Origin: Falsochrobactrum shanghaiense
Lineage (GTDB): Bacteria > Pseudomonadota > Alphaproteobacteria > Rhizobiales > Rhizobiaceae
Assembly (NCBI RefSeq): GCF_003149535.1
Contig: NZ_QGDB01000004.1
Coordinates: 188,501 to 252,500 of the forward strand
DNA: 64,000 bases
Direction of reading: 5' to 3'
Positions 1,425-49,197 of this stretch are shown piece after piece (within the stretch, counting starts at the first letter, position 1; each line of letters opens with the position of its first letter). The notes under the pieces were generated by a model. It was not told where the DNA came from. It saw only the letters and a list, made by a program, of their open reading frames with translations, and made no database searches. Made by a program: the position numbers and the translations under genes.

Positions 1425-1426
1425 GA

Positions 1427-3988: not shown

Positions 3989-4004
3989 CTGGAGGCACGA
4001 ACCC

Positions 4005-4805: not shown

Positions 4806-4835
4806 GGCAATCGGGATTCACCCCAGCCGGGTCAA

Positions 4836-4976: not shown

Positions 4977-5250
4977 AATGGGGGACTCTTTCGCAGAGGT
5001 TACCGGTTGAAACGAGGGCCGGGATTCACCACCCCGGAGACGGCTCAGTTACACATGAAAAAAGTTACCTGCAACTGAACGGCAGGCTTTCCAACACTCC
5101 TTTAGCGCGTAAAACCGTAAATCCTGAACGGCTGTGACAAAGCAGCAACGCCGTAGCGGCTCTTGGGTTCCAAAGGTTGCATGCACAAGGCGGCGTGGCT
5201 TGTGAGAAGTCCCTTGACCTTGGCCCCTGCCCTCTGCCATCGATGCAATC
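4977..5250. other. Intergenic region upstream of rsmE
   Basis: No convincing gene is seen here. A TTGACC hexamer at about 5212 could be the -35 element of the rsmE promoter. A plus-strand ORF crossing 4842-5078 has no ribosome binding site and no protein-like character. Confidence 0.4.
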
Positions 5251-5997: not shown

Positions 5998-6037
5998 GGG
6001 CACAAAATCCAATCTTCAATGAAATTGACTTGCGTGT

Positions 6038-6055
6038 TTGGACATTTTTGTCCAA
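6038..6055. promoter_or_regulatory. Perfect palindrome upstream of gshA
   Basis: TTGGACA-TTTT-TGTCCAA is a perfect 7-base inverted repeat with a 4-base centre, 38 bases before the gshA start. It lacks the GC-rich stem and trailing T-run expected of a terminator, so an operator is more likely. The regulator is unknown. Confidence 0.45.
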
Positions 6056-6092
6056 TCACGCTGAGAAGTAAAAGTTGACTGAGGATAGATGC

Positions 6093-7466: not shown

Positions 7467-7535
7467 AAAGCGCGACAAGAAAACCTTCCTATGCGCGGTT
7501 GACGCAGAAGTCCTGATTTGCGACTTATTGCCGAT

Positions 7536-8828: not shown

Positions 8829-10604
8829 ATGTGTGGAATTTGCGGAGAAGTGAGGTTCGATGGCGGTACGCCCTCGATTTCGGCAATCTCGAAAATGGCA
8901 GACATACTTGCCCCACGCGGACCGGATGCATCCGGCATCGTAATACGGGGCAATGTCGGTTTTGGTCACAGACGATTGAGAATCCTCGATCTTTCCGAAA
9001 AATCGCAGCAACCGATGATCGATGCCGATCTCGGCCTCAGCATCGTTTTCAATGGCTGCATCTATAATTTCCGGGAATTGCGCGCCGAACTGGAACAGAA
9101 GGGCTATCGCTTCTTTTCCGATGGCGACACGGAAGTCATTCTCAAGGCATGGCATGCATGGGGCGAAGAATGCGTTTCGCGTTTTCACGGCATGTTTGCC
9201 TTCGCCATTCATGAGCGCGATAGCGGCAGGCTCATCATGGCGCGTGACCGCTTCGGCATCAAGCCGCTCTATCTGGCGCAGGTATCGGGCGCATTGCGCT
9301 TTGCCTCCTCGCTTCCGGCGCTGGTGAAAGCTGGCGGCGTCGATACATCCATCGACCGCGCAGCACTCCATCATTATATGAGTTTCCATGCCGTGGTGCC
9401 GCCGCCGCACACCATTTATAACGGTGTTCGCAAGCTTGGCCCGGCGACGATCCGCATTTATGAGGCCAATGGTCGTTTCACCGATCGCCTCTACTGGCAG
9501 CCGCCCTATAGCCGCAGGCCGGGCGACAGCGCGATAAGCCGCGAAGAATGGCAGGAACAATTGCTCGATACGCTGCGCCTGGCCGTCAAACGCCGCACGA
9601 TTTCCGATGTGCCGGTCGGCGTCCTGCTTTCAGGCGGGGTGGATTCGAGCATGATTGTCGCCTTGCTCGCAGAAGCGGGCCAGACGGGCCTCATGAGTTT
9701 TTCAGTCGGATTTGAGGAAGCCAATGGCGAGAAAGGAGACGAATTCATCTATTCCGATCTGATCGCCGAACATTTTGGCACCGAGCATCACAAGATTTTC
9801 GTGCCCTCCGCCGATCTGATGAACGCGCTGCCGGGAACGATCGCCGCCATGTCGGAGCCTATGGTTTCCTATGATAATGTCGGCTTCTACCTGCTCTCCA
9901 AGGAAGTCTCGAAACATATCAAGGTCGTGCAATCAGGTCAGGGCGCAGACGAGGTGTTCGGAGGCTATCACTGGTATCCGCCGCTGGTTGATTCCAATGA
10001 TGTCGTCAGCGATTACGCCAAGGCCTTTTGCGACCGCTCGCATGACGTGCTCGCAACACAGCTTGCACCCGAATGGCTATCCGAGCGTGATTACAGCCGT
10101 GAATTTCTGAACGAGCAATTGTTGCGTGACGGCGCGGATACGCCGGTGGATCGCGCCCTGCGCCTCGATAGCAACGTCATGCTGGTCGACGATCCCGTCA
10201 AGCGGGTCGACAACATGACCATGGCCTGGGGGCTTGAAGCGCGTGTTCCATTTCTCGACCATGAACTGGTGGAGCTTGCCGCGCGCATTCCGCCGGAAGA
10301 AAAGCTGCGCGATGGCGGCAAGGGCATTCTCAAGGATGTCGCGCGCAAGATCGTGCCTGCCGCGGTGATCGACCGCAAGAAAGGCTATTTCCCCGTACCA
10401 CAGCTGAAATATATCGCTGGCCCCTATCTCGACATGCTGCGCGACGCGCTGACATCGCAAAGAGCGCGTGAACGCGGTCTGTTCCAGAAGGACTATCTCG
10501 ACAGGCTCTTTGCCAATCCGTCCGACCATATCACGCCGCTGCGCGGCTCGGAACTCTGGCAGGCGGGACTGCTGGAAATGTGGCTCCAGACGCAGGAGGC
10601 CTGA
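8829..10604 (+). CDS. asnO: N-acetylglutaminylglutamine amidotransferase AsnO
   Basis: A 591-residue asparagine-synthetase-like protein. The N-terminal class II glutamine amidotransferase domain requires a cysteine at position 2, so the start is MCGICGEVRF at 8829 rather than an upstream ATG. The C-terminal synthetase domain has the ATP PP-loop SGGVDSS. In the NAGGN pathway this enzyme amidates N-acetylglutaminylglutamine to give the compatible solute. Its stop is followed one base later by ngg, which supports cotranslation. The family assignment rests mainly on the ngg neighbour, since AsnB-type proteins are otherwise alike. Confidence 0.9.
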   Translation: MCGICGEVRFDGGTPSISAISKMADILAPRGPDASGIVIRGNVGFGHRRLRILDLSEKSQQPMIDADLGLSIVFNGCIYNFRELRAELEQKGYRFFSDGDTEVILKAWHAWGEECVSRFHGMFAFAIHERDSGRLIMARDRFGIKPLYLAQVSGALRFASSLPALVKAGGVDTSIDRAALHHYMSFHAVVPPPHTIYNGVRKLGPATIRIYEANGRFTDRLYWQPPYSRRPGDSAISREEWQEQLLDTLRLAVKRRTISDVPVGVLLSGGVDSSMIVALLAEAGQTGLMSFSVGFEEANGEKGDEFIYSDLIAEHFGTEHHKIFVPSADLMNALPGTIAAMSEPMVSYDNVGFYLLSKEVSKHIKVVQSGQGADEVFGGYHWYPPLVDSNDVVSDYAKAFCDRSHDVLATQLAPEWLSERDYSREFLNEQLLRDGADTPVDRALRLDSNVMLVDDPVKRVDNMTMAWGLEARVPFLDHELVELAARIPPEEKLRDGGKGILKDVARKIVPAAVIDRKKGYFPVPQLKYIAGPYLDMLRDALTSQRARERGLFQKDYLDRLFANPSDHITPLRGSELWQAGLLEMWLQTQEA

Positions 10605-10605
10605 C

Positions 10606-12432
10606 ATGAAGAAATCAGACAAGGCGGACATGGTTCGGCAGAAGACAAGGGGAACGAAAGCCTTCTCCCACCGGCTGACCCGGCTGCGCTCGCCTGCGGA
10701 GGCAGGATCCTATCAGGAACATCTGCACGGCCAGGGCCAGGAAGACAAATCCGATAAAAACCGCAATGTCGTCTTCGATTGCGGCTGGGGCCGTCTTCTT
10801 TTTGCGCAGACTTTCGATAGCAACGAAGCAATTGTCGATGCCTTGCGTGCAGAAGCGCCGGAAAGCCGCGATATTGTGTTCTATGTCAGCGACCCGCATG
10901 TTCTGCTTTCGCTGGCCCCGCAGGAAATCTTTCTCGATCCCTCGCACACATACCGGCTGGAACTGGCCACCTATCGCGCAGGCGGCAGGCGCACGCGCGG
11001 CATTACCATTCGCCGCGCCGTCTCCGAGCTTGATGCGGACGGCATCAACGCGGTCTATGCGGCGTGCGGAATGGTTCAGTTGCGCCCCGATTTCTTTTCC
11101 GCCGAACGGGATAATCGCGCCGTTACCTATTTCGTGGCGCAGGACGATACGACGGGCGATATTGTCGGCACGGTCACGGGCATCAATCACGAGCGCCTTT
11201 TCGATGATCCCGACAAGGGGGCATCGCTGTGGTGTCTTGCGGTTCATCCGCAGGCACGCCAGCCAGGCATCGGCGAGAAGCTGGTGCGCAAGCTTGCCGA
11301 GCATTTTCAGGCACGCGGCCTCAACCATGTGGACCTGTCTGTCCTCCATGATAATGACAATGCGATCCGGCTTTACGACAAACTGAAGTTTCGCCGTGTT
11401 CCCTTCTTTGCCATCAAGCGCAAGAATGCGATCAACGAGAAATTCTTCGCGTCCCCCATCAATTCGCTTGATGCGCTCAACCCCTATGCGCGCCTCATCG
11501 TCGATGAGGCGCTGCGGCGCGGCATTCATGTCGATATAACGGATGCGGAGGGCGGTTTTTTCCGCCTTTCCCATGGAGGCCGTTCCATTCATTGCCGCGA
11601 AAGCCTCTCGGAAATGACATCGGGCGTGGCCATGTCTATCTGTGACGACAAGGCGGTGACAACGCGCACCGTAGCGAAAGCAGGGCTTGTCGTGCCGGAG
11701 CAGATTGCGGCCAGCAGCAGCGATGAAATGCTGGAAGCTTTCCTCGAAAAGCATGGCAAGCTGGTCGTGAAACCAGCGCGCGGCGAGCAGGGACGCGGCA
11801 TTTCGGTCGGTATTTCAACGATGAAAGACCTGCGGGCTGCAATCAGGCAGGCGCGGGACGTTTGCGATCAGGTCTTGCTTGAATCCTGCTTCGAAGGCGA
11901 AGATCTGCGTCTCGTCATCATCGATTACAAACTGGTGGCGGCGGCAATCCGCCGTCCGCCACGCGTCATCGGCGACGGGAAAACAACGATCCGCAAACTC
12001 ATAGAAACTCAATCGCGCCGCCGCGCTGCCGCTACAGGCGGCGAAAGCCGTATTCCCATCGATGCCGAAACAAAACGCTGTCTGGCCCAGCAGGAACTCA
12101 CGCTGGACGACATATTGGAAGATCGCCGCGAGATTACTGTGCGCAAGGCCGCCAACCTGCATCAGGGCGGCACAATCCATGACGTGACCGCAACGGTCAA
12201 CAAGACGCTTGTCGATGCAGCTTGTGAGGCAGCCCGCGTGATCAATATTCCGGTCGTCGGCATTGATTTCATGGTGAAGTCGCCCGAAGGGGCGGAATAT
12301 GTCTTCATTGAAGCCAATGAACGACCGGGGCTGGCCAATCATGAGCCGCAGCCCACAGCGGCGCGTTTCGTGGAATGCCTCTTCCCGCAATTGAAAACCA
12401 ATGCCTACCCCGCAGAACGACGGGCCGGATAA
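10606..12432 (+). CDS. ngg: N-acetylglutaminylglutamine synthetase (GNAT/ATP-grasp fusion)
   Basis: A 608-residue two-domain enzyme. About residues 130-270 form a GNAT acetyltransferase (WCLAVHPQARQPGIGEKLV, then DNDNAIRLYDKLKFRRVPF). The C-terminal half is an ATP-grasp ligase (KLVVKPARGEQGRGISVGI, and near the end FIEANERPGLANHEPQPTA). Together they acetylate and condense two glutamines, making the dipeptide that AsnO amidates into an osmoprotectant. The ATG at 10606 has CAGGAGG upstream, and the gene follows asnO immediately. Fusion and order match the known NAGGN cluster. Confidence 0.9.
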   Translation: MKKSDKADMVRQKTRGTKAFSHRLTRLRSPAEAGSYQEHLHGQGQEDKSDKNRNVVFDCGWGRLLFAQTFDSNEAIVDALRAEAPESRDIVFYVSDPHVLLSLAPQEIFLDPSHTYRLELATYRAGGRRTRGITIRRAVSELDADGINAVYAACGMVQLRPDFFSAERDNRAVTYFVAQDDTTGDIVGTVTGINHERLFDDPDKGASLWCLAVHPQARQPGIGEKLVRKLAEHFQARGLNHVDLSVLHDNDNAIRLYDKLKFRRVPFFAIKRKNAINEKFFASPINSLDALNPYARLIVDEALRRGIHVDITDAEGGFFRLSHGGRSIHCRESLSEMTSGVAMSICDDKAVTTRTVAKAGLVVPEQIAASSSDEMLEAFLEKHGKLVVKPARGEQGRGISVGISTMKDLRAAIRQARDVCDQVLLESCFEGEDLRLVIIDYKLVAAAIRRPPRVIGDGKTTIRKLIETQSRRRAAATGGESRIPIDAETKRCLAQQELTLDDILEDRREITVRKAANLHQGGTIHDVTATVNKTLVDAACEAARVINIPVVGIDFMVKSPEGAEYVFIEANERPGLANHEPQPTAARFVECLFPQLKTNAYPAERRAG

Positions 12433-12445
12433 GCAGGATTTTCGG

Positions 12446-14170
12446 TCAACGCCGTTTGGCAGGCCGATCGGACAGGATGACGCCATGACGGCGCGCAAGC
12501 TCGGCAGTGACCATCTCGATCTCCTGCATCTTGCGCGCGCTATTCCAGCCGAGTTCCCGCGCGGCAATATCGGCTATTGCCTGCACATTGGCGATTGAAA
12601 GCGCACCATCGATCGCCAGTGTCGTGCGCCGCAGCACAATATCGGCCAGATGCACGATCATTTCATTGCGCGCGATCCACGCGATTTCGGCTTCGCTCAC
12701 CGTATCCGTATCAGGCAGGAGGCTTGCGCCGTCACGGGCCTCCTGCGCGATTATCGCGGCGGCAATCGTCCCGTAACGCTCCAGCAATATCTCGATGCGC
12801 GCCGCAGCCAGACCGCTTTTCTCGACATGCCTTGCTACCCAGATGGCACGCGCATGGGGGTCAGCCGGGTAATCCTTGCCGCCGCCAATCGACAGGTTGC
12901 GGGTGGATTTGACGCGTTCGCGCGCAAGACGCGAGAGCACCATATCCGCCACTTCCTCGGCAAAGCCGCGAAAAGTCGTCCACTTGCCGCCGACCAGCGA
13001 TATGATCGCAAAAGGCCGTTTGGCATCCGGTTCGATAACCGGCGCGGAATGATCGCGGCTGATAAGCCCCGGTTCGGAAGCGTTCGACGCGGGCAGCGGT
13101 CGAATACCGCTATAGGCATAGACGATCTGCTTGCGGTCGAATTGCAGTTTCGGCAGCAATGAACGCAGGCTTTCGATGAAATAATCGATCTCAGGTTCTT
13201 CAGCGCGCACATTGTCGGGGTCGGCACAGGGAATATCGGTCGAGCCGACCAGCGCCAGACCATGATAATCATAGACAAGGCAGATGCGCCCGTCATCCGC
13301 CTCGAAATAGATCATGCGGCCATTCAGGCTTTCGACGAGTTGCGGATGATCAATAAGAATATGTGATCCCTTGGTGCCGCCAATCATCTTCGTCGGCCTG
13401 TCCAATGCCTCATTTACGTGATCGATCCATGGCCCGGCTGCATTGATGACCAGTTTCGGTTTAACGTCAAATGCCTCGCCGTCAGGGCCTTCAAAACTGA
13501 CGATGCCGTCTTTGGCGGAAATGAGGGTCGTAAAATTACTGGCCGCACTTGCCGGGTTGGCGGCAAGGCCGTCACTTACCAGTTCATAGACGAGACGTTC
13601 GGGCTGGCTGACCTTGGCATCGTGATAAATGCCGCCCGCGACGATAGAAGGCGTAATATAGGGCATTTCCCTTATTGCGCGGTTTCTGAACACAAAGCGA
13701 TGGCGCGGCATGACGCGCTCGCGCGCACCGAAATAATCATAAAGGGCAAGGCCGATCTTGATGAGAACCGCGCCACGGCTGCGTGGTGCGGTGGTCGATC
13801 CCATCAGCGTGCGCAAGGACGCCCACACACCCCGCGTCCACGAAAATACCGGGATGAAAGTCGGCAGCGGCTCCACATTATGCGGCGCATTCTTCAAAAG
13901 CAGATTGCGCTCCAGCGTGGATTGCGCGACAAGCCCGAACTCGCCCGTCTCCAGATATTTCAACCCGCCATGGATGAGGCGCGACGGCGCGGCACTCGTA
14001 CCCGAACCGAAATCGGCCTTGTCGATGATCAGGCAATTGACGCCCTGCTCGCTCAGATCGCGAAACAATCCCGCGCCGTTGATCCCTGCCCCCAAGATGA
14101 GAACATCGGCACCCTGCGCCTGCAATTGCCTGATGCGCTGGCTTGCATTGATATTATCGGGCTTGCTCAT
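12446..14170 (-). CDS. GlpD-like FAD-dependent sugar-phosphate dehydrogenase
   Basis: A 574-residue FAD enzyme of the glycerol-3-phosphate dehydrogenase family, with the dinucleotide fold VLILGAGINGAGLFRDL at the N-terminus, SRLIHGGLKYLETGEFGLV, and a C-terminal DAO-C-type domain. It overlaps the kinase stop by 4 bases (ATGA), so the two are translationally coupled. As the partner of an FGGY kinase and an ABC importer, it probably oxidises the phosphorylated polyol rather than only glycerol-3-phosphate. It is a distant paralogue of EryB in this window. Substrate is not determinable from the sequence. Confidence 0.75.
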   Translation of the reverse strand: MSKPDNINASQRIRQLQAQGADVLILGAGINGAGLFRDLSEQGVNCLIIDKADFGSGTSAAPSRLIHGGLKYLETGEFGLVAQSTLERNLLLKNAPHNVEPLPTFIPVFSWTRGVWASLRTLMGSTTAPRSRGAVLIKIGLALYDYFGARERVMPRHRFVFRNRAIREMPYITPSIVAGGIYHDAKVSQPERLVYELVSDGLAANPASAASNFTTLISAKDGIVSFEGPDGEAFDVKPKLVINAAGPWIDHVNEALDRPTKMIGGTKGSHILIDHPQLVESLNGRMIYFEADDGRICLVYDYHGLALVGSTDIPCADPDNVRAEEPEIDYFIESLRSLLPKLQFDRKQIVYAYSGIRPLPASNASEPGLISRDHSAPVIEPDAKRPFAIISLVGGKWTTFRGFAEEVADMVLSRLARERVKSTRNLSIGGGKDYPADPHARAIWVARHVEKSGLAAARIEILLERYGTIAAAIIAQEARDGASLLPDTDTVSEAEIAWIARNEMIVHLADIVLRRTTLAIDGALSIANVQAIADIAARELGWNSARKMQEIEMVTAELARRHGVILSDRPAKRR

Positions 14171-15681
14171 ATCATCGTCTCTTCGATTTTCGGCCATAAA
14201 GGACCAAGCGCTGCGGCCATTTCACAAAAGAGCGCATAACGCTTTTCATATTGCGCATGGCGTGATGCGTCGGGGCTATAGCTTGTCGCAATCGCATCCA
14301 GATCGCGCGGGTCGCTATAAACGTCGCTGAAGACGCCCACGCCCTTGCCCGCGCACAGAGCCGCTCCCCATGCGGCGGCTTCATCCGTATCCGTCACCGT
14401 GACCGGCATGCCAAGCACATTGGCGAACATCTGCGCGAAGGCCGGACTGCGCGACACGCCGCCGGTCAGCCGCGCGCGCGAAATCGCAAAGCCCCCCTTG
14501 AGATGATCGACATGAATGCGGTGATTGAAGGCGATGCCTTCCCATACCGCGCGCAGCATGTCGCCGCGATCCTGCCATCCGCGCAGGCCGAAAAACGCTC
14601 CGCTTGCCAGCGCGCCATAGGGCGAGCCGAAAAGATAGGGATGAAACATCGCCGTGGAGGGCCGCGCCAGCGCGGCATCGATTTCCGGTCGCAATATATC
14701 GTGGATGGAACGGCCCACCCGCTCCGCCTCGCCGCGTTCCGCAGCGCAAAGCTTGTCGAGAAACCAGTCGTAATTTGCCGTCGAGGCAGGTGAGATCGAC
14801 ATATTGTTCCATTCGCCGGGCGCAATGCCATTGCGGCAGAACCAGCTTTCATGAACACGCGGTTCAGAAAAAAGCGTTTCGTTGATCGAATAGGTTCCCG
14901 CAACCACGGCCACCGTGCCGGTTGCAAGCCCGCCCACGCCAAGAGCCGAAGCGGTCACATCGTGCAGACCGGCGACCACCGGCGTTCCGGCAACCAGTCC
15001 GGTGCGCTCGGAACAGGCCCGCGAGACTCGCCCCACGATCTCATCGGAACGCGACATGGGAGGCAAGGCCGTCCAAAGTTCTTCCAGCCTGAACAGCGCA
15101 AGCGCTTCCTTGGAGAATTCCTGCGTGTTCACATCGGTAAAGGACGTCGAGGCTTCAGTGCGGTCCGTGCCCACTTCACCGGTCAGGCAAAATCGCAGCC
15201 AGTCCTTGGCCGCAAGAACATGGCCAATGCGTGCATAGCGTTCCGGCTCGTTTTCCTTCACCCATGCCAGAATGGCGGATGGAGCCGAAGCATGGGGCAA
15301 TTGTCCGGTAATGGCGATGGATTGCTCTGCAATCGGGCTTTTGACCCAGCGCTCCGCTATATCGACCGCCCGGCTATCCAGCGACAAAATGCCGGCACCC
15401 AGCGGATGCCGGTCGTGGTCGAGCAAATAGATGCCGTCCCCATGAGCGGTCGCGGCTACTGCCAGAATATCGGATACAGAGCGCCCGCTCTTTGAGATCG
15501 CTTCTGCGATTGCATCCGCCGTCGCATTCCAGAATTCGTCCATATCGCGTTCGACATGGCGGGCATGGGGAAAGGATTGTGTCACCCGACGGCGCGCGAC
15601 GGAAAGCGGCGTGCCATCGATGTCGAACAATACGGCTTTGGTGACGGTCAGTCCGCTATCAATTCCCAGCAGGCAAGGCAT
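14167..15681 (-). CDS. FGGY-family carbohydrate kinase
   Basis: A 504-residue sugar/polyol kinase. The N-terminal phosphate-binding segment is LLGIDSGLTVTKAVLFD, and the C-terminal FGGY domain has ARLTGGVSRSPAFAQMFANV. An ATG at 15681 (MPCLLGIDSG) is chosen so that the ATPase core begins at the usual place. It lies between a DeoR gene and a GlpD-like dehydrogenase in the operon that also carries the EryEFG-type transporter. It resembles L-xylulose/erythritol-type kinases generally; the substrate cannot be fixed. It is a paralogue of EryA on the other side of the divergent promoter region. Confidence 0.8.
   Translation of the reverse strand: MPCLLGIDSGLTVTKAVLFDIDGTPLSVARRRVTQSFPHARHVERDMDEFWNATADAIAEAISKSGRSVSDILAVAATAHGDGIYLLDHDRHPLGAGILSLDSRAVDIAERWVKSPIAEQSIAITGQLPHASAPSAILAWVKENEPERYARIGHVLAAKDWLRFCLTGEVGTDRTEASTSFTDVNTQEFSKEALALFRLEELWTALPPMSRSDEIVGRVSRACSERTGLVAGTPVVAGLHDVTASALGVGGLATGTVAVVAGTYSINETLFSEPRVHESWFCRNGIAPGEWNNMSISPASTANYDWFLDKLCAAERGEAERVGRSIHDILRPEIDAALARPSTAMFHPYLFGSPYGALASGAFFGLRGWQDRGDMLRAVWEGIAFNHRIHVDHLKGGFAISRARLTGGVSRSPAFAQMFANVLGMPVTVTDTDEAAAWGAALCAGKGVGVFSDVYSDPRDLDAIATSYSPDASRHAQYEKRYALFCEMAAALGPLWPKIEETMI

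Positions 15682-36632: not shown

Positions 36633-36635
<3 letters not shown>
36590..36635 (+). repeat. Rhizobiales-type intergenic palindromic repeat, copy 2
   Basis: CCCGAAAACCGTTTCACAC followed by TTTTCGGG forms a palindromic block, preceded by TTTTAACGCG. It matches the copies at 18803-18904 and 42880-42955 in sequence and orientation but is shorter. It lies between the terminator and the nrdF stop. Confidence 0.6.
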
Positions 36636-39830
<3,195 letters not shown>

Positions 39831-39855
<25 letters not shown>

Positions 39856-40250
39856 AATCGTTCCATCCCGTCTGTAACCTTGCCAATGTCTTCCGCGGTT
39901 CCCAAAAGTTCGAAGCGGTAGAGATAGGGAACCTGACATTTGGCGGAAATGATGTTGCCTGCGAGGCCGAAGGCTTCGCCGAAATTAGAATTGCCCGCAG
40001 CAATCACGCCGCGAATGAGGGAGCGGTTATCTGCATTGTTGAGAAAACGGATAACCGGCTTGGGGACCGCGCCTTTGTGGCCCCCCGCACCATAGGTGGG
40101 CGTCACCAGCACGAAGGGCTGATGCACACGCAACATGCCGGAACCGTCTTCATAGCTTTCCAGCGGAATGCGGGATGCCTGCATTCCAAGCCGCATCACG
40201 AAACGGTGCGTATTCTCCGAACGGCTGGAAAAATAGACGATCTGTCCCAT
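39831..40250 (-). CDS. nrdI: Flavodoxin-like protein NrdI
   Basis: A 139-residue NrdI protein, a flavodoxin-like partner needed to assemble the manganese-tyrosyl radical of NrdF. The FMN phosphate-binding region is [15 protein letters not shown] near the N-terminus, followed by [10 protein letters not shown] and [19 protein letters not shown]. It lies between nrdH and nrdE, overlapping the latter, as in typical nrdHIEF operons. Confidence 0.92.
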
Positions 40251-40286
40251 GACAGGCTCCGCAAAACCGGGTTTTCGTGATGGGGT

Positions 40287-40508
40287 TCAGGCGAGCGCGC
40301 CGATCATGTCGGGACGAAATCCCGCCCAGTGGGTTTCGCCCGCAACGACAACCGGAACCTGCCGGTAGCCCATACCCTGAACCAGATCGAAAGCCTGCGT
40401 GTCGGCGGAAATATCGATGAGTTTATATTCGATACCCTGACGGTCGAGCGCGCGGGTCGTGGCCGTGCATTGCACGCATGCAGGCTTGCTATAGACGGTA
40501 ATGGTCAT
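40287..40508 (-). CDS. nrdH: Glutaredoxin-like protein NrdH
   Basis: A 73-residue redoxin with the active site CVQCTAT and the family ending GFRPDMIGAL, which distinguishes NrdH from ordinary glutaredoxins. It supplies electrons to NrdEF. The ATG at 40508 has GAGGAT 5 bases upstream. It is the first gene of nrdHIEF and lies about 300 bases downstream of a cobalamin riboswitch. Confidence 0.92.
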   Translation of the reverse strand: MTITVYSKPACVQCTATTRALDRQGIEYKLIDISADTQAFDLVQGMGYRQVPVVVAGETHWAGFRPDMIGALA

Positions 40509-40551
40509 TTTATCCTCACCAAGAGTTAGCCAACTAATTATGCGGTTTAAA

Positions 40552-40588
40552 GGGCGCAGAAAGTCGATGCGCATTTACATCTGCGCCC
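40552..40588 (-). promoter_or_regulatory. Hairpin in the nrdH leader
   Basis: GGGCGCAGA and TCTGCGCCC can pair across 19 bases, followed on the minus strand by TTTAAACC. It lies between the riboswitch and nrdH and could be part of the expression platform. The T-run is weak for a terminator. Confidence 0.45.
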
Positions 40589-41082: not shown

Positions 41083-42330
41083 CTATCCGCGCGAGCGGCG
41101 GTGCCTGAGCAGCATGGGGGCATATTCCGCAATATAAAGGCTGAAAGCCGCCATCCATAACAAGGCCGATGCGGCAAGCAACGTATGGAAGAAGTCTGGT
41201 ATCATTTCCGCAAAGGGACGGGTAAGTGCGGAGGCGACGATACACAGATAAATCAGCTGCGTCGTCGGCGAAGCGGTGAGCTCACGGCCGGTATGGCCAC
41301 GGGTTGCACGGGTCATCACCGCCAGCATCATGCAGCCCATGACGCCGACCGTCATGACATGCAGGGCAGAATAGGGATTGAGCCAGCCAAGCGCGGAACA
41401 GGCAACGGCGATAAAGCCAAGGGGCACGAAAGCATAGGCGACATGCAGGATAAGCACTAGCTTTTCAGGCGTCGTGCTCCAGCCGCGCCAGCGATAAAGC
41501 CGTATCGCATGCAAGGCCCCGGCGATCAGGGCGAACACGACGGTCGGTGAGCTTTCAGGGGCCGCGATCCAGCCCAGGCAGGCGATTGCACCGATAAAAA
41601 CACTCAACGCGTCATAGCGGTTGAACGGTACGGGAAAACGCGTTTCGCCTGCGCGATTGAGCCAGTTGCGGGTGAAGCTGGGGATGATCCGTCCGCCCAT
41701 CAGCATGACCAGCAGCACGAAGGCGCTTACCCCGAAGCGGCTGGCCAGCGCCACGTCGCCATTGGTCAGCACCATATAATGAAAGACGAGATTGGCGATC
41801 ATGACGAGAGCGACGCCGGACAGCACCTTGAGATTGCGCCATTGCTTTCCTGCAACGATCTCGCGCGCTGCAATGAAAAGCAGCAGGGGCAGAAACAGGC
41901 TCTCAACGATAATGCTTATGGAAATATGCATCAGGTCGGGCGCCAGAAAGACCAGTCTTCCGGCAAGCCACACCCCCACGAGGATCGCAAGCGGCGTTCC
42001 GGCAACCGGCAGCCTGCCGGTCCAGTTCGGCACGGCGGTCAGCAGAAAGCCTGCCAGTACCGCTGGCGCGAAGCCGAACACCATTTCATGCGCATGCCAG
42101 TTGACGCCGCCATAAGAACCGCCGATCGACAGCCCGAAGGTAAGCGACAGGATCCATAAAAGCATGGCCAGAATCGCCCAGATGGCCCCGCCAAAAAAGA
42201 ACGGGCGGAAACCATAGCCTAAAATTGCCGGACCCGTCGTCTTCAGCCCGCGTGCGATGGCACCCCGGCGTATGAAGGGCGTTGCGTCCGGGCTGGCGGA
42301 GGCGGCTGGTGTGCCTTCCTGTGTGGTCAT
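41083..42330 (-). CDS. nnrS: NnrS-family heme/copper membrane protein
   Basis: A 415-residue polytopic membrane protein with about twelve hydrophobic segments. Conserved features include GYGFRPFFFGGAIWAI, NWHAHEMVFGFAPAVLAGFL and MGGRIIPSFTRNWL, matching NnrS proteins that help cells resist nitric oxide and accompany denitrification genes. The ATG at 42330 has GAGGAAGCC directly upstream. It follows the pseudoazurin gene on the same strand, and a Crp/Fnr regulator lies further upstream. Confidence 0.85.
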   Translation of the reverse strand: MTTQEGTPAASASPDATPFIRRGAIARGLKTTGPAILGYGFRPFFFGGAIWAILAMLLWILSLTFGLSIGGSYGGVNWHAHEMVFGFAPAVLAGFLLTAVPNWTGRLPVAGTPLAILVGVWLAGRLVFLAPDLMHISISIIVESLFLPLLLFIAAREIVAGKQWRNLKVLSGVALVMIANLVFHYMVLTNGDVALASRFGVSAFVLLVMLMGGRIIPSFTRNWLNRAGETRFPVPFNRYDALSVFIGAIACLGWIAAPESSPTVVFALIAGALHAIRLYRWRGWSTTPEKLVLILHVAYAFVPLGFIAVACSALGWLNPYSALHVMTVGVMGCMMLAVMTRATRGHTGRELTASPTTQLIYLCIVASALTRPFAEMIPDFFHTLLAASALLWMAAFSLYIAEYAPMLLRHRRSRG

Positions 42331-42387
42331 GGCTTCCTCATCATGCAGCCGACTCCGGGTAGGGTTCATAGCGCGGCCAGCAACGGG

Positions 42388-42831
42388 TCATTGTGCGCTG
42401 GCGAGAGCCTTTTCCAGCCGCGTCTGCACCACTTTCGGCTTCTTGGCCGCGATGATTGCATCGAGATTGGCGGGGTTTTCGCCCACTTCGATGAGCGCAA
42501 TCATACCCATGGCATAATGCGGTGTACATTTGACAAGATAAGCGCCGGGCTGGGTGACGGTCAGCGTATAATTCTCATTGATCTTGCTTTTGAACTTTTC
42601 AGCACCTTCCGGGATCATGCCCTTGATCGACTCGACATTATGCCCCTTGTCCACGGGTATGAATGTGATCGTATCTCCGGGATTGGCCTTGATCAGCGCG
42701 GGTTCGAAAACCATGACGCCTTCTGCGCCCTTATTGAGCATCTGGACTTCAAAATTCTCGGCCAGAGCGGGGGTGGCCATCAGAAGGGAAAGTCCGGCAG
42801 CGGCGGCGAAGGGAATGGCAATATTACGCAT
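42388..42831 (-). CDS. Pseudoazurin (periplasmic type I copper protein)
   Basis: A 147-residue cupredoxin with a signal peptide ([20 protein letters not shown], cleaved after PALA). The type I copper ligands are visible: histidine in DKGHNVESI and the Cys-His-Met group in [11 protein letters not shown]. Pseudoazurin donates electrons to copper nitrite reductase or nitrous oxide reductase in denitrifying alphaproteobacteria. An FNR-like box lies 190 bases upstream. It lies just ahead of nnrS, consistent with a nitrogen-oxide respiration role. Confidence 0.9.
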
Positions 42832-42851
42832 TTGAGCTCGATCTCCATGTC

Positions 42852-42955
42852 TAGAGCGTTACCAGTTCAAGCAGAACCGTCGGAGCCGCTCTATTTGTTT
42901 TATGCATTTCCGGGCGCAAAACCGTTTTACACTTTTGCTGGAAATGCTTCAGGTC
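42852..42955 (+). repeat. Rhizobiales-type intergenic palindromic repeat, copy 3
   Basis: Contains GCTCTATTTGTTTTATGCAT, then GCGCAAAACCGTTTTACAC and TTTTGCTGGAAATGCTTCAG, very similar to copy 1 at 18803-18904. It lies between the FNR-like box and the pseudoazurin start, lengthening that leader. Confidence 0.65.
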
Positions 42956-43021
42956 CCGGCATCGCAACGTGCCGGGCGGGCCGTACAAGTTGCAGACTAG
43001 AGCTGAAGGGGAACTGTTTCT

Positions 43022-43035
43022 TTGACCCGGATCAA
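43022..43035. promoter_or_regulatory. FNR/NnrR-type box upstream of pseudoazurin
   Basis: TTGACCCGGATCAA differs from the FNR consensus TTGAT-N4-ATCAA at one position and is almost symmetrical. It is positioned to control the pseudoazurin gene. The adjacent Crp/Fnr-family gene is a candidate binder. Confidence 0.6.
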
Positions 43036-43051
43036 ATAGTCCGGCTATTGA

Positions 43052-43747
43052 TCAGATTTCCGGGTCGGCAATCTGTCGCAGGCGACAAAGATCGCGAACG
43101 AACAGCGATTTACGCCCGCCTTCAACCCAGCCCTTGCTCTGCCATTGGCTGATGATACGTGAAACCGTATGCAGTGTCGTGCCGGTCAATTCCGCTATAT
43201 CCTGCCGGGAAACCGGAAAATCGATCCGAATACCGCCCTTTTCCTTCACGCCCGCCTCGCCGAGCAACCGGATGATGGCATGCGCCACGCGCTGCTCTAC
43301 TTCTTCCGTCGAAATTTCGCGGATGCGTGAATGGGCGGCATCGAGGCGGCTTCCGATCATCTGCATCGTATTGACCGCAAGCACCGGATTGCGCGCCATG
43401 AAGCCGCTCATCATCTCCATGGGCCAGGCAAGCACGCTGCTGTCCACCAGCGCGGACGGAGTGCCGGGATAATCCGTGCGCCCCAGCGCCATGGCAAAAC
43501 CGAACAAGTCACCGGGATTGACGACGCGGACGATGATCTGCTGGCCATCCGCCGTCACCTGCGTGACCTTGAGCCTGCCCTGGATCAGAAGATAGAAAAG
43601 GCGGGCTTCTTCGCCCTGCTGAAAAACGGCACTGTTCTTTGGAACAATCCGGTGCGTGGCCTGGCTCATAAGCTGACTGAAGGCCGCTGCCTCCATGCCG
43701 GAGAAAACGGGCAGTTTTCTGACCAGCGTATGTATGATCGGTTCCAT
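43052..43747 (-). CDS. Crp/Fnr-family transcriptional regulator
   Basis: A 231-residue regulator with an N-terminal cyclic-nucleotide-binding-type domain (FQQGEEARLFYLLIQGRLKV) and a C-terminal Crp HTH (VSRQDIAELTGTTLHTVSRI). It lacks the N-terminal cysteines of Fnr that hold an iron-sulfur cluster, so it resembles the NnrR/DNR/NarR group, which responds to nitrogen oxides. The ATG at 43747 has GAGGG upstream. It lies upstream of pseudoazurin and nnrS with an FNR-like box between, supporting a role in nitric-oxide or denitrification control. Confidence 0.82.
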   Translation of the reverse strand: MEPIIHTLVRKLPVFSGMEAAAFSQLMSQATHRIVPKNSAVFQQGEEARLFYLLIQGRLKVTQVTADGQQIIVRVVNPGDLFGFAMALGRTDYPGTPSALVDSSVLAWPMEMMSGFMARNPVLAVNTMQMIGSRLDAAHSRIREISTEEVEQRVAHAIIRLLGEAGVKEKGGIRIDFPVSRQDIAELTGTTLHTVSRIISQWQSKGWVEGGRKSLFVRDLCRLRQIADPEI

Positions 43748-43837
43748 GACCCTCACGCTCTCCGCTATGCAGGAGAGGGTTAGCAGACCTTCCCGTGAAA
43801 GAAAACCAAATTTCGGAACAGGTAAAATAACGCTGTT

Positions 43838-46555
43838 TTATCCGCGAATTATCCCCGGTAATATGGCATCGCCGACAAACAGACCGGTAACGCCGGTCAT
43901 CGCCCCCACAAGCTCGAAATCATTCAAACCGAAATCTGTTTTGATACCCTGATCTTCTATGATTTTCCGAATGCGGTGCAATATTTCAGTGCTGTCAATG
44001 CCAAGAGCGCGTGCAAGGCAATAGTCAGCCATCATGCCGTGGCAAAGACCAATTGAAGGACGTGCTTCACCCAGCCGTGCCGTGACGATTGCCATATCCG
44101 CAGCATAGGCTTCTTCCGGAATGTAAGGGCGGCACAGTAATCGCGAATAACCGATCCCCACGGAGCCATGGCACCAGGACGTACCGCAAATGTCATCTTT
44201 TCCAAGACGCGGCCAGCCCCGGCTTGTCCGGTATCTGGTTTCCCGTTCGATATTAGATCCAATAATTGCAATCGCCTCCCTGTCCTCTTGCCGAAAGCAG
44301 GTCATATATTCGGCCAGCGAAGCGGAAACCCCTGCGGTTCCATGTGCAAAGCCCAGCAATGTTGTTTTTTCATCAAGAAGCGCATTCGACATATGTTTCA
44401 AGAGCATGAATGCAGTATCGGCAAGCCTCCTGATCTTTTCGGCTATCGGATAATTGCGATAGAGCCCATGTAACCTTGACAACATGCTTAAAGTGCCACT
44501 GACGCCCCCCAGAAAGTCGAGCTGTTGATATTGTTCAAATTTCTCCGTTAGCAATTGGTAAGAAATTTTTGCCAATTCACGATCCAGCAGGGAAAGGCAT
44601 CGCGTCAGCCGTGCCTGTTCGATAAGGCTCAAGCTCCATAAGGTCCCCGCCGTTCCGTTTAGCGCCCCCAGTTGCGCAGCCGGCATGTTCTCCAACTGCG
44701 CGGTGATCTGGCCGGCAAGCCTATGCGCAAACCCCATAAAACGGCTATTGGACAAACCTTGTCCGACAATGTGAAAGGCCAGAGCAATACCAGAAACGCC
44801 CTGATAAAGATCAAGGCCCGTTAAATCAGCACGGATTGTATCATCCATTACAGAAATGTTGCGCCAATAGATTTTTCCGTCCGCGTGCTGCGCGCGATCC
44901 ATGACACTGTTCATGACGCTATGCGCCAACGCATCAAGCCACCGGTCATCGGATATTGCAGTGAGGTTTGCATAATTTTGCGGTTTTCCGGCACAAACGG
45001 TTTTCGTTCGCAGGCGATACACAAGGAATGCATATCGGGCATCTTCTAGGGTCTGCTCAATGAATGCTGGCGTTAGCCGTAAAAACTGGCTCTCCAGTTT
45101 GTTGAGAGGCGACTGAAAAACTCTCGTTGCAAGCGGTTGCCCAAGACTATTGGTCAGAATGTCTGCATCGAACGACATCTGAAAATACGGAATATCGCCG
45201 CGTTCCAAATCAGCAATTTCCGATTCCATAATATCGGCATCACGGGCAGGATCACAAAGAGCCCGCAAATCGCGGGCAGTAGTCCCCCTTATGAGAGATT
45301 CAGGATGGCGGCAATTATAGAGTATTTTTGCGTATTCTTCCGTCGCCTGTTTGACAATGCGCACCTGAGCGTGACGCATGGCGCCTTTTATCACGTCGAG
45401 AACATCGCGCCGGTTATCATGCAGAAACAAAAGTGTTTCCCGCATTCCATCCAGAATTTCCTGCTCATAGTGAAGAAAATCGACCGTATCGCCGTTGAGT
45501 ATTACCCCGCTGGGGTAATTTCCGGTCACCAGTTTTTGCTTTTCCATTTTCAGTGAGGAGCGGCGTTGTTGCGGGTTGACCAGAATATCAATGGCTGTCT
45601 GCATTTGTGCACGGGCACTCAGCGGACTGATCTCTATCTCGTCATACATAGTTTCTGTAGGCAACAGAAGAGAAGCATATAGATGGTTGTTGGCCGGGAT
45701 ATGTTTTTCCGTTTCCAGCGTGCAGGAGAAAACAGTCTCCAGGTCAACAATGACCGGATATTCACCGTGGGCAACAATGTTTTCCATATGAAGATCTGTT
45801 GCAGAACATAAATGGGCGAGTGCTATGAGCGAGCCATAACGGCGGTAAAATGCACGCACCTGCTCTGGCGTTTCACACTCGCTCTGCAAGACGGCTTCCG
45901 CCCAGCCATAATCTCCCCGGTTAAGAACGCGCGGAACAGCATGATCGATTAAAAAATGACGGTTCCACCACCCAATGAGGTTATAAAAGCCTTCGTCAAT
46001 CGTCATATCTCGCGGCTTGTAATAAAGAACACGCGAGCACCCTTCCTGATTGATATATTCCACCCGTGCAGTCTGCTGCATGCCTCTGTGCGGATCACCA
46101 ATCATATGAATGTCGCTTATTCGGCTGACCGCGCTATCCCCATGAAAATAATCAGCCGCCATGCGGATGTCCAAAGCAATGCGATCAAGAAAGACTTTCA
46201 GGGAATTTGAATAGATCGTTATATCCCGCTGCCATGTTTCCCATAAGCGTGGATATTTTTTGCAAAGCGCCGTCAGATTTTCTTGCTTGCGGACCTCGCG
46301 AACAAAAAATAAAAACCGTTCAGCGTCAGATTGCCCTTGCAGCAATCCGCCCTGATCCGCGAAATTCATCTCCAGGATCAGCAATCTTTCCCATATCTTT
46401 TTGAGAACCGGGAAGCAGGCACGCTCAAAAAATCGCCTGAGCTCCGTTTCAGAAGCGGGCAAATCCCGCACATGCAGAACATAATCATAATGATCAGCCA
46501 GAAGATGACGATAAACATCAGCGAAAATATCATCGTCTAATGATAGACCCGTCAT
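43838..46555 (-). CDS. lanM: Class II lanthipeptide synthetase LanM
   Basis: A 905-residue bifunctional enzyme that dehydrates serine/threonine in a precursor peptide and then forms (methyl)lanthionine rings. The N-terminal dehydratase (DUF4135, about residues 50-500) shows YYKPRDM (about 179), ATDLHMEN (252-259, with the paired Asp and His of LanM kinaselike domains), IVDLETVF, and GDIPYFQMSFDADI. The C-terminal LanC-like domain (about 560-905) carries GFAHGTAGVSASLAEYM and the zinc ligands in CGTSWCHG (about 790-797) and GLCHGMMADYC (about 837). The ATG at 46555 has AAGG 7 bases upstream. The gene is visibly AT-richer than its surroundings, suggesting horizontal transfer. A candidate precursor lies upstream on the same strand. 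Confidence 0.93.
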   Translation of the reverse strand: MTGLSLDDDIFADVYRHLLADHYDYVLHVRDLPASETELRRFFERACFPVLKKIWERLLILEMNFADQGGLLQGQSDAERFLFFVREVRKQENLTALCKKYPRLWETWQRDITIYSNSLKVFLDRIALDIRMAADYFHGDSAVSRISDIHMIGDPHRGMQQTARVEYINQEGCSRVLYYKPRDMTIDEGFYNLIGWWNRHFLIDHAVPRVLNRGDYGWAEAVLQSECETPEQVRAFYRRYGSLIALAHLCSATDLHMENIVAHGEYPVIVDLETVFSCTLETEKHIPANNHLYASLLLPTETMYDEIEISPLSARAQMQTAIDILVNPQQRRSSLKMEKQKLVTGNYPSGVILNGDTVDFLHYEQEILDGMRETLLFLHDNRRDVLDVIKGAMRHAQVRIVKQATEEYAKILYNCRHPESLIRGTTARDLRALCDPARDADIMESEIADLERGDIPYFQMSFDADILTNSLGQPLATRVFQSPLNKLESQFLRLTPAFIEQTLEDARYAFLVYRLRTKTVCAGKPQNYANLTAISDDRWLDALAHSVMNSVMDRAQHADGKIYWRNISVMDDTIRADLTGLDLYQGVSGIALAFHIVGQGLSNSRFMGFAHRLAGQITAQLENMPAAQLGALNGTAGTLWSLSLIEQARLTRCLSLLDRELAKISYQLLTEKFEQYQQLDFLGGVSGTLSMLSRLHGLYRNYPIAEKIRRLADTAFMLLKHMSNALLDEKTTLLGFAHGTAGVSASLAEYMTCFRQEDREAIAIIGSNIERETRYRTSRGWPRLGKDDICGTSWCHGSVGIGYSRLLCRPYIPEEAYAADMAIVTARLGEARPSIGLCHGMMADYCLARALGIDSTEILHRIRKIIEDQGIKTDFGLNDFELVGAMTGVTGLFVGDAILPGIIRG

Positions 46556-46644
46556 CGGCAAACCTTATCATGCTTGATGAAGCGCATTTTACCGGCTTTA
46601 TTACTCTGCCTGAACGAAGCAGCCCGGCGGACAAAATATATGAT

Positions 46645-46694
46645 GTAATAAAAAATACCCCTTATTGAACTTGCAATTTGCAAGCTCAATAAGG
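46645..46694 (-). terminator. Terminator/attenuator between candidate lanA and lanM
   Basis: On the minus strand CCTTATTGAGCTTGCAA and TTGCAAGTTCAATAAGG pair over 17 positions, including one G-U pair, and are followed by GGTATTTTTTATT. On the plus strand the same site gives an A-C mismatch and no T-run, so the structure is built for minus-strand transcripts. It lies about 50 bases after the candidate precursor stop and 90 bases before lanM. Confidence 0.85.
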
Positions 46695-46741
46695 TTATTC
46701 TATAAATTAACTAACATGCTTTATTAAAGCAACTCTCGTAA

Positions 46742-46870
46742 TTATCCACATACTGGTGAATAATAAATAGAACACGCAATAGATAATGTTTTACCATTAC
46801 TAATGTTCACATTTAAACGATTGCCAATGACTTTTAAAGCAGTATTGTTATCATATTTTTCAGAGATCAT
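46742..46870 (-). CDS. lanA: Candidate lanthipeptide precursor LanA (42 aa)
   Basis: A 42-codon ORF on the same strand as lanM and 186 bases upstream of it. AGGTG lies 5 bases before the ATG. The leader-like part (MISEKYDNNTALKVIGNRLN) is followed by VNISNG and then KTLSIACSIYYSPVCG at the C-terminus. That end contains two cysteines, each preceded three residues earlier by serine (SIAC and SPVC), plus extra serines and a threonine. This is just what ring formation by LanM needs. Against it, the leader is short and lacks the classical double-glycine and ELxxxE features. Cleavage after NG at about residue 26 is a guess. A terminator follows, as is usual between lanA and lanM. Confidence 0.55.
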   Translation of the reverse strand: MISEKYDNNTALKVIGNRLNVNISNGKTLSIACSIYYSPVCG

Positions 46871-47301
46871 ATGAGCACCTATTTTGATTTTAACATGACT
46901 TCCAAGCTTCGCCTATCTCTTCATATTGCAGAGATAGTTTGCCATGTAGCCTCGTAATTAGCTGCACTTTTTTCAATAACCGGCCAGAAAGCCAGAAATA
47001 CTTTACAACCGGCAAGTGAAAAACAGATTTTATAACAAAAATACTCTGTACGACGGACTAATTTAGATACCTCTTTCGAGGAACATTCAATTCCTAATAA
47101 TTGCCCGCAAGGTCACGACCGATGATCGGTGGCGGCAGGTCGAACGCTGACGCGTAGATCTGCCGGCATGAAAGCAGATGGTTGCATAAAAGTGATCGAG
47201 ATTTGTGTTGACTATTAACATTGTGTTAACCACAGTTTGTTGCAATGTGTTACAAAGCGTTACGACGCCCACATTACAGCGCCATATGAAAGGAGAACGG
47301 A
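46871..47301. other. AT-rich region between candidate lanA and the ABC transporter gene
   Basis: No firm gene is seen. On the minus strand CTATCTCT and AGAGATAG (46913-46937) form an 8-base hairpin 43 bases before the candidate lanA start. A minus-strand frame open from about 47109 to 46921 encodes peptide-like sequence (KLVRRTEY near its start and AANYEATWQTISAI at its end) but has no usual start codon, so it may be a gene remnant. Near 47205-47264 four GTGTTAAC-like repeats precede the ABC gene. Confidence 0.4.
47205..47264 (+). promoter_or_regulatory. Repeated GTGTTAAC-like elements before the ABC transporter
   Basis: GTGTTGAC (47205), GTGTTAAC (47223), GTGTTACA (47247) and GCGTTACG (47257) occur in the same orientation, and TTAAC-ATTGT-GTTAA forms a palindrome. 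They lie 40-100 bases before the ABC transporter start. They may be regulator half-sites. Confidence 0.35.
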
Positions 47302-49197
47302 TTGAACATGCAGCGGCGGACCGGTCAGCATTTTTTGCCTGCAAAGGATGGATCTGCCGTGTCCTCCATGACTTCGTTCTGGGGGCTGATGCGCGCCTAC
47401 TGGATTTCGGAGCGCTGGAAAGAAGCCTGGGGCCTTACGCTCGCGATTTTCCTTTTCACCGCCTTCATCAGCAAGACCACGGTCTGGGTGGCAGAAGCTT
47501 CAGGCCATCTGATGAATTCCATCGTCAATGTGAATTCCGCACCTGTGCAGAACCCGCTCATGGTGATTGCCGCCAATGCGGGCATTCTGGTCGTGTTGAT
47601 GCTGGCCAAGGATGTATGCCTGGTCGGTTTCCGCCACCTGCTTTCCACGACCCTGCATCGCAAATGGCGCAAATGGCTCAACGACCGCTTTTCCGACGCG
47701 CTGCTCGACCGCAACCACACGCATTATCACCTCCAACAGGGCAAGGGCGACGCGCTGCCCGACAATGTCGACCAGCGCCTGCAGGAATCCATCAAGGGCA
47801 TGACCGGCGGGGCCATCGGTCTCGTCATGGGCGTTGTCGGCGTGCTGCTCTCCGCCTTCTTTGTCGGCCAGAAGCTGCTTGAAATCTCCACCGAGGTCAG
47901 CGGCCTGGAGTTTCTCGGCTCCTATGGCGGTGCGATTCTCGCTTTTGCGGCGATCATCATCTATGTGCCGCTGGGAACGCTGGTTGCAATCAAGATCGGC
48001 CGCAGGCTGGAACGTCTCAATCTGGGCATGCAAAAGGCCGAAGGCTCCTATCGTGGCGAATGGACCACGCTGCTGCGCCGCAGCTTCCAGATTTCCGCGT
48101 CCGAAGGCGAAAGCGTGCAGCGCAGCGTCAACAGGCGTCTTTACAGCGATGTCGATAATACATGGAACCGCCTCAATCGGTTTGATGCCGCCTATCTCGC
48201 CTTTTCGCAGGCCTATGGCTTCATGTCGAACCGGATCGTCGCCTATATTCCGGGCCTGCTGCCCTATATGAGCGGGGCTGTCAGCTTCCGCAATTATGTG
48301 ACGGGCGCGGAACTCGTCGCAGCCATGATCAATGATTGCTCGTGGTTCATTCAGGTCATGCCGGCCATTGCCAACCTGCGCGCCAATGCGGGCCGTGTCA
48401 CTGGACTGGCACGGGCAATCGACAATGTGCAGGACCCGGCAGAATTCTACGGCCGCAGCGGCGTCAACCGTTTCAGCTTCACCCGGCAGCATCCGCGGTT
48501 CGGATTGTCGGTGCGCAATCTGACCCTGATGCATGGTGCGGACAGTGAAGCGCCCTTCCTTCGTTCCGGTGTCATCAATATCCATCCGGGCGACTGGGTC
48601 TATATGCGCGGTCCATCCGGCTCCGGAAAGACCTCTTTCATCAAGGCGCTCAACGGCCTCTGGCCTTTTGGCACCGGTGACATCATCTATCCGCAGGGCG
48701 CGACATCCATCTATGTGCCGCAGGAAGCAAAGTTTCCGTCAGTGAGCCTGAAACAGCTCGTCTGCCTGCCCGACAGTGAAGCAGATTTCGACGATCTGGC
48801 CGTGGCCGCCGTCCTGCATGAAGCAGGACTTGGGGAATTCATCGCACGCATGAAAGATGCCGATGCGGACGGCTCGCCCTGGGACATGGTGCTATCGGGC
48901 GGACAAAAGCAGAAGGTGATGCTGGCGCGAATCCTGCTGCACAAGCCTTCCATCCTCTTTCTTGACGAAGCCACCGGCGCTCTCGATCCGGCAGCGAAAC
49001 TGCTTTTCCATACCGCGCTCAAGAACCATTGCCCCAAAGCCATCGTCATCAGCATCATGCATGAGGAAAAGCTGCCCACGCTCGAAAACGGCGCGGATGT
49101 TTATTCGCATGTTCTTGAAATACATAATGGCTATGCAGCCCTGCGTCCGATCCATTTCCCGGTTGTAAGCGAAGCACCGCTGATTGCCGCCGAATGA
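47302..49197 (+). CDS. SbmA/BacA-like ABC transporter with fused ATPase
   Basis: A 631-residue protein with an N-terminal ABC_membrane_2-type domain (about residues 30-380, several membrane helices) related to SbmA/BacA and the ABCD family. A C-terminal ATPase follows, with Walker A GPSGSGKTSFIKAL, signature LSGGQKQKVMLARILL and Walker B SILFLDEATGALD. Relatives import peptides or cobalamin and influence very-long-chain lipid traffic. The start is TTG 6 bases after AGGAG; an ATG at 47308 is the alternative. It is divergent from the LanM cluster, so peptide transport or self-protection is an attractive but unproven link. Confidence 0.85.
   Translation: MNMQRRTGQHFLPAKDGSAVSSMTSFWGLMRAYWISERWKEAWGLTLAIFLFTAFISKTTVWVAEASGHLMNSIVNVNSAPVQNPLMVIAANAGILVVLMLAKDVCLVGFRHLLSTTLHRKWRKWLNDRFSDALLDRNHTHYHLQQGKGDALPDNVDQRLQESIKGMTGGAIGLVMGVVGVLLSAFFVGQKLLEISTEVSGLEFLGSYGGAILAFAAIIIYVPLGTLVAIKIGRRLERLNLGMQKAEGSYRGEWTTLLRRSFQISASEGESVQRSVNRRLYSDVDNTWNRLNRFDAAYLAFSQAYGFMSNRIVAYIPGLLPYMSGAVSFRNYVTGAELVAAMINDCSWFIQVMPAIANLRANAGRVTGLARAIDNVQDPAEFYGRSGVNRFSFTRQHPRFGLSVRNLTLMHGADSEAPFLRSGVINIHPGDWVYMRGPSGSGKTSFIKALNGLWPFGTGDIIYPQGATSIYVPQEAKFPSVSLKQLVCLPDSEADFDDLAVAAVLHEAGLGEFIARMKDADADGSPWDMVLSGGQKQKVMLARILLHKPSILFLDEATGALDPAAKLLFHTALKNHCPKAIVISIMHEEKLPTLENGADVYSHVLEIHNGYAALRPIHFPVVSEAPLIAAE

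What the first reader, a model, noticed from the sequence alone, without database searches (positions are those of the whole stretch)
43838..46870. Class II lanthipeptide locus with an unannotated candidate precursor
A full-length LanM has intact dehydratase and zinc-binding cyclase motifs. Upstream on the same strand is a 42-codon ORF, too short for common gene callers, that ends KTLSIACSIYYSPVCG with two SxxC units. Its position, strand, ribosome site and following terminator all match a LanA gene. I know of no described lanthipeptide from this bacterial group with this core. The leader lacks the classical double-glycine site, so it may represent an unusual leader class.
Basis: partly seen in the sequence, partly recalled or inferred. 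Interest (0 to 1): 0.9.

Follow-up and report, generated by a model that had tools for sequence, protein, structure and literature searches.

The report
Two-gene lanthipeptide cassette, new leader family
A bacterium related to Ochrobactrum carries a small, probably acquired pair of genes, a 42-residue peptide and the enzyme that should fold it into sulfur-bridged rings; related bacteria carry the same pair with a shared front end on the peptide and a different tail, so this looks like a real but uncharacterised family of ring-forming peptides.

Summary
Observation confirmed; interpretation holds. 43838-46561(-) is a full-length class II lanthipeptide synthetase (TIGR03897) with motifs intact. 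The 42-codon ORF 46742-46870(-) is its likely precursor gene: peptides beside the same LanM elsewhere share its leader (MISxKYDxxLAxxVVG). With each locus and its kin left out, a leader profile ranked a precursor first in 10 of 10 loci (window E 3.2e-7, four others only 0.04-0.6). LanM and precursor occur in the same 5 of 35 genomes of the genus. Three related precursors show purifying selection. Cys: 0 of 289 leader residues, 42 of 268 others. The pair sits in a low-GC insert of about 3.4 kb, absent at one empty site of six genomes compared. The genome has no C39 peptidase. No Pfam or NCBIfam model matched six precursors (one chance-level Kelch hit). Known chemistry, apparently new leader family; product, export and role unknown.

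The parts
43838..46561 (-). lanM: class II lanthipeptide synthetase (DUF4135 dehydratase + LanC-like cyclase), 907 codons; start TTG 46561 or ATG 46555
   Evidence: PF13575 E 4.3e-75, PF05147 E 3e-35; TIGR03897 461.1 bits over cut-off 304; LicM2 and CylM in PDB matched; motifs kept in 8 aligned LanMs with few changes
46742..46870 (-). lanA: 42-aa precursor; leader about residues 1-26, core about 27-42 (KTLSIACSIYYSPVCG); boundary inferred
   Evidence: held-out leader profile E 3.2e-7; related small ORFs beside LanM in other genomes
46876..46880 (-). likely ribosome-binding site AGGTG, 5 nt before the ATG
   Evidence: sequence; recognised by eye
46660..46694 (-). hairpin with T-run between precursor and lanM; likely leaky terminator or RNA-stability element (inferred)
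   Evidence: a hairpin with z -2.9 or lower follows the stop codon in 8 of 12 precursors
43815..47184 (.). approximate insert that carries lanM and precursor; no other ORF of 90 aa or more in it except two antisense to lanM
   Evidence: in L067 (G032) the two flanks lie about 65 bp apart; GC 0.49 lanM, 0.28 precursor, 0.57 window; ORFs
47302..49197 (+). flanking core gene: ABC transporter with membrane and ATPase domains; not part of the cassette
   Evidence: PF06472, PF00005; matched in 35 of 35 genomes of the genus
43052..43756 (-). flanking gene: Crp/Fnr-type regulator; not part of the cassette
   Evidence: PF00027, PF13545; aligned next to the empty site in L067

Best explanation
A two-gene class II lanthipeptide cassette. 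The 42-aa peptide is the substrate of the adjacent LanM. LanM binds the N-terminal leader (ISxKYDxxLAxxV[VI]G), phosphorylates and eliminates Ser/Thr in the C-terminal core to dehydro residues, and its zinc domain adds the two Cys thiols to them, giving up to two thioether rings from KTLSIACSIYYSPVCG (inferred from LanM chemistry). The hairpin after the precursor's stop codon probably lets only part of transcription reach lanM, so that more peptide than enzyme is made (inferred). The leader is removed by a protease and the product moved by a transporter that are not encoded in the cassette, or the product stays inside (inferred). The role is most likely competition with other bacteria or signalling (guess). 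Shown: intact enzyme, co-occurring precursor under selection, shared leader family, insert with an empty site. The stated confidence is for the LanA-LanM pairing; for the later steps it is lower.
For: LanM identity and motifs. Shared leader in small ORFs beside LanM. Held-out profile: a precursor ranks first in 10 of 10 loci. Genus: LanM in 5 of 35 genomes, precursor in the same 5. Family sample of 394: precursor profile at E <= 1e-5 in 6 genomes, which include all 5 with a LanM of 44% identity or more (window genome counted); the next match is at E 0.02. pN 0.09-0.15 against pS 0.59-0.66 for the precursors of G025, G024 and G009. Cys 0 of 289 leader residues against 42 of 268 others in 12 precursors. 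Insert with an empty site.
Against: No transcript, peptide or mass data. Held-out E-values are weak in four of ten loci (L024 0.038, L008 0.058, L023 0.14, L025 0.63), and the main G024 precursor was not among the top three. Nine genomes supplied the 11 rows of profile A3, so their hits are by construction; G083 is independent. In one search at most 18 first-look candidates a genome were scored. The leader/rest cut was set by me after seeing the sequences. The selection test rests on three closely related peptides of 45-48 codons with pS near saturation. Cores differ between lineages and are poor in Cys in G290 (2) and G190 (1). G083 has precursors but no LanM match. No protease, LanT or immunity gene lies in the insert. 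The hairpin is not exceptional in 4 of 12.
Confidence: 0.9

Rival explanations
1. The small ORF is a regulatory (attenuator) ORF: its translation controls read-through of the hairpin into lanM, and the true precursor lies elsewhere.
For: Small ORF followed by a strong hairpin with T-run upstream of lanM; hairpins after the precursor in other loci.
Against: Purifying selection at protein level, core included, in G025, G024 and G009; two precursors each in G174 and G024, one of the latter downstream of lanM; Cys confined to the C-terminal part; the precursor profile has a single match at E <= 0.01 in the window genome, all 49 candidates scored.
Confidence: 0.05
2. A decaying cassette: LanM and precursor are remnants of a larger cluster that lost export, protease and the companion gene, and no product is made.
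For: No exporter or protease in the insert and no C39 peptidase in the genome; the 145-aa companion gene of four other loci is missing; LanM lies in pieces in G009, with IS66-family genes between two of them.
Against: 907-codon frame intact with the motifs kept; the companion is also absent from G005, G290 and G190, whose LanM frames are intact, in G005 and G190 beside other genes than in the window (the G290 contig is only 5 kb); no LanT-type exporter among the 20 neighbouring genes tested in seven loci, although an EamA, a TerC and a CLC-type membrane protein were among them.
Confidence: 0.15
3. Chance ORF next to LanM.
For: Small ORFs of 37-60 aa with Cys after residue 30 and none in the first 26 are not rare: 145 of 728 in the loci.
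Against: Held-out profile E 3.2e-7, next ORF 2.6; co-occurrence with LanM in 5 of 35.
Confidence: 0.01

Closest known systems
Class II lanthipeptide synthetases LicM2 (6st5) and CylM (5dzt)
   Same: Same two-domain enzyme; Lys, Asp-His-Asn and Asp-x-Glu dehydratase motifs align with both, the cyclase Cys and Cys-His motifs with LicM2; residue roles recalled
   Different: Distant (E 5.5e-57 and 1.9e-33; the CylM match covers only the dehydratase part). The LanMs nearest to the window's, 40-61% identical, come from its own GTDB family
Phaeornamide (pha) cluster, an alphaproteobacterial type II lanthionine pathway (PMC9505594 and PMC13060382, passages)
   Same: Alphaproteobacterial LanM with a leader-bearing precursor
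   Different: Pha has an NHLP-family precursor, arginase, hydroxylase, GNAT and three transporter genes; none of these is in this insert
Class II families with conserved leaders and non-conserved cores (PMC7268733, passages)
   Same: Conserved leader, variable core
   Different: Those named there as examples are NHLP- or Nif11-type (II 2, 13, 17, 26); this leader matched no curated model. Its supplementary precursor lists were not available to me, so overlap is not excluded
Predicted class II subfamilies E and G that include Proteobacteria (PMC11251773, passages)
   Same: Class II precursors predicted in Proteobacteria
   Different: Their sequences were not seen; whether this family is among them is unknown

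Membership tests
Class II lanthipeptide (LanM) pathway | LanM with DUF4135 dehydratase and LanC-like cyclase | tested here: met
Class II lanthipeptide (LanM) pathway | Linked precursor with leader and Ser/Thr/Cys core | tested here: met
Class II lanthipeptide (LanM) pathway | Thioether (lanthionine) rings in the product | not testable with these tools
   needs mass spectrometry
Class II cluster processed by a C39 peptidase at a double-glycine | C39 peptidase in the cluster and GG/GA at the leader end | tested here: not met
   no PF03412 match in the own genome (control rings in 8 of 14); 5 of 10 carrier genomes have one, each on another contig than the LanM or precursor locus, but most are drafts; the window peptide holds neither GG nor GA
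Nif11 or NHLP leader family | match to a curated leader model | tested here: not met
   six of the 12 precursors scanned: no NCBIfam hit up to E 1; Pfam up to E 5 gave only one Kelch match at E 0.14

The most novel reading that the evidence does not exclude
A leader-defined peptide family in Hyphomicrobiales whose leader is handed between different modification systems: LanM alone, LanM with a new 145-aa companion protein (weakly FabA-like), or no LanM but a deoxyhypusine-synthase-like operon that starts 2 nt after the precursor (G083), with products processed and moved by housekeeping rather than dedicated machinery.
Probability: 0.15. Interest if true: 0.75.

Novelty: new variant of a known kind. 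Interest (0 to 1): 0.52.

Why it matters
If true, it adds a leader family and a bare precursor-plus-synthetase layout to class II lanthipeptides in a bacterial group for which my paper searches listed none, gives a profile that finds very short precursor genes, and makes testable how such a peptide is processed and exported without LanT. Natural core variants behind one leader also suit studies of LanM tolerance.

Tried and rejected
Chance ORF: rejected by the held-out profile. Neighbouring ABC transporter as part of the cassette: rejected; it is matched in 35 of 35 genomes of the genus, and in G005, G009, G024 and G025 it lies far from LanM or on another contig. Known RNA element: no Rfam match at gathering score in 43000-48500. 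Plasmid relatives of LanM: 190 records, none at 60% or more; the 25 listed are at 21-27%. Close LanM outside the family: none found in samples of 397 (order), 385 (class) and 289 (phylum) genomes; the other matches there are at 40% or less, those near 40% over fewer than 150 residues. Fold of the companion gene: single-sequence model poor (mean pLDDT 48.7), no PDB profile match up to E 5, no NCBIfam match, no plasmid match; left open, no fold search run. Literature: nine searches. The listings for lanthipeptide with Ochrobactrum (7), Brucella (15), Phyllobacterium (3), rhizobia (20 of 37 listed), LanM with Alphaproteobacteria (1) and hotdog (4) show no title or abstract opening about this family. 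Listings only were seen there; passages were read in four papers. Most subscription papers are not held, and no supplementary file could be opened.

Full report
The LanM at 43838-46561(-) is real: PF13575 E 4.3e-75 and PF05147 E 3e-35, TIGR03897 461.1 bits against a cut-off of 304, and matches to LicM2 (residues 52-851) and CylM (57-488) in the PDB. The LYYKPR, TDLHMEN...VDLET, VRIV...T, GFAHG, SWCHG and LCHG motifs are kept with few changes in eight aligned LanMs; their catalytic roles are recalled from work on CylM. It is the only DUF4135 match in the genome.

The 42-codon ORF at 46742-46870(-) is very probably its precursor. Small ORFs beside LanM in relatives begin with the same leader. 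A profile of six leaders, searched against 2393 small ORFs, found precursors it was not built from in G190 (E 1.2e-7), G009 (2.3e-6; close kin of two of its rows), G174 (0.0033 and 0.027) and a second one in G024 (0.09). With each locus and its close kin left out, a precursor ranked first in 10 of 10 loci. E-values were 3.2e-7 for the window, 4.1e-8 L012, 9.3e-9 L027, 1.1e-4 L026, 8.7e-4 L103 and 0.0022 L028, but only 0.038 L024, 0.058 L008, 0.14 L023 and 0.63 L025; in L024 it was the second precursor that ranked first and the main one was not in the top three.

Distribution: LanM in 5 of 35 genomes of the genus, window genome included, and the precursor at E <= 0.01 in the same five. In 394 genomes of the family, 11 hold some match to the LanM protein, 5 of them at 44% identity or more. 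The precursor profile at E <= 1e-5 hits 6 genomes, those five plus G083; the next match is at 0.02 and 201 of 394 have some match up to E 10. Nine genomes supplied rows to that profile, so the informative results are the 388 genomes without a strong hit and G083. No close LanM appeared in the samples of order, class and phylum beyond the window genome. The one scan of genome contigs gave three relatives: Ochrobactrum sp. RH2CCR150 (61%), Phyllobacterium salinisoli (61%) and Rhizobiales isolate AFS058694 (44%).

Selection and composition: among the precursors of G025, G024 and G009, pN is 0.09, 0.12 and 0.15 against pS 0.62, 0.66 and 0.59; for the core part pN is 0.04, 0.11 and 0.12. For leaders of more distant pairs pN is 0.26-0.33 against pS 0.67-0.81, near saturation. 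In 12 precursors from ten genomes (the broken second copy of G083 left out) Cys occurs in 0 of 289 leader residues and 42 of 268 others, with a cut chosen by me. Cores are alike within that trio but not among the window, G005, G290 and G190. A hairpin follows the stop codon with z -2.9 or lower in 8 of 12 precursors; G202, G024 (main), G174 (second) and G083 lack it.

Origin: against G032, the genome nearest by the flanking ABC gene (84%), the window aligns up to about 43814 and again from 47185, places that lie about 65 bp apart in G032. In the five other LanM-less genomes compared the right-hand alignment begins at 47188-47192 but the left flank differs, so one of six shows a clean empty site. 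The window LanM is as like that of Phyllobacterium G290 (60%) as that of its congener G005 (61%) and only 40% like those of its congeners G024 and G025, and the G005 copy lies beside other genes. This points to horizontal acquisition.

What is missing: no C39 peptidase in the own genome. Five of ten carriers have one, each on another contig than the lanthipeptide locus, though most are drafts. A 145-aa companion gene stands between precursor and LanM in G025, G009, G174 and G202. In 14 genomes searched with a profile of those four it was matched strongly only there and not in the window genome. Its family is unknown apart from a FabA similarity below the cut-off (E 0.0048 in one of four).

Prior work: alphaproteobacterial LanM pathways are known (phaeornamide; passages in PMC9505594 and PMC13060382), and class II precursors in Proteobacteria have been predicted (passages in PMC11251773). 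I could not see the precursor lists behind PMC7268733 or PMC11251773, so this family may already be listed there without comment.

Conclusion: known class II chemistry (inferred) with an apparently new leader family and a minimal, acquired cassette. The interest is above routine annotation, but there is no evidence yet of a new chemistry or activity. That GTDB places Ochrobactrum with Brucella is recalled.

Noticed in passing
L103 (G083) 1377-8589: Two leader-family peptides in a genome without any LanM match; the intact one ends 2 nt before the likely ATG of a deoxyhypusine-synthase-like gene, followed on the same strand by a 478-aa ORF without Pfam match, a 2-hydroxyacid dehydrogenase, an AdoMet decarboxylase/spermidine synthase, a 399-aa ORF without Pfam match and an ABC ATPase. 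The second copy has a stop within its leader match.
   Followed up: partly
L023:11122-11559, L025:9017-9454, L026:8194-8694, L028:7828-8277: A conserved protein of about 145 aa and unknown family between precursor and LanM in four loci.
   Followed up: partly
L025 (G009) about 9678-14755: LanM lies in several pieces and IS66-family genes stand between the last two; the assembly is 69% complete.
   Followed up: partly
L024 (G024) 3813-8408: A second precursor downstream of LanM, then two beta-lactamase-family hydrolases and a 413-aa ORF without Pfam match on the same strand.
   Followed up: no
window 41083-43756: NnrS, a cupredoxin and a Crp/Fnr regulator beside the insert: a nitric-oxide or denitrification-like neighbourhood (inferred).
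   Followed up: no
window 36633-40574: Ordinary-looking ribonucleotide reductase genes with NrdI and a glutaredoxin (the gene at 36633-37748 judged by eye only).
   Followed up: no
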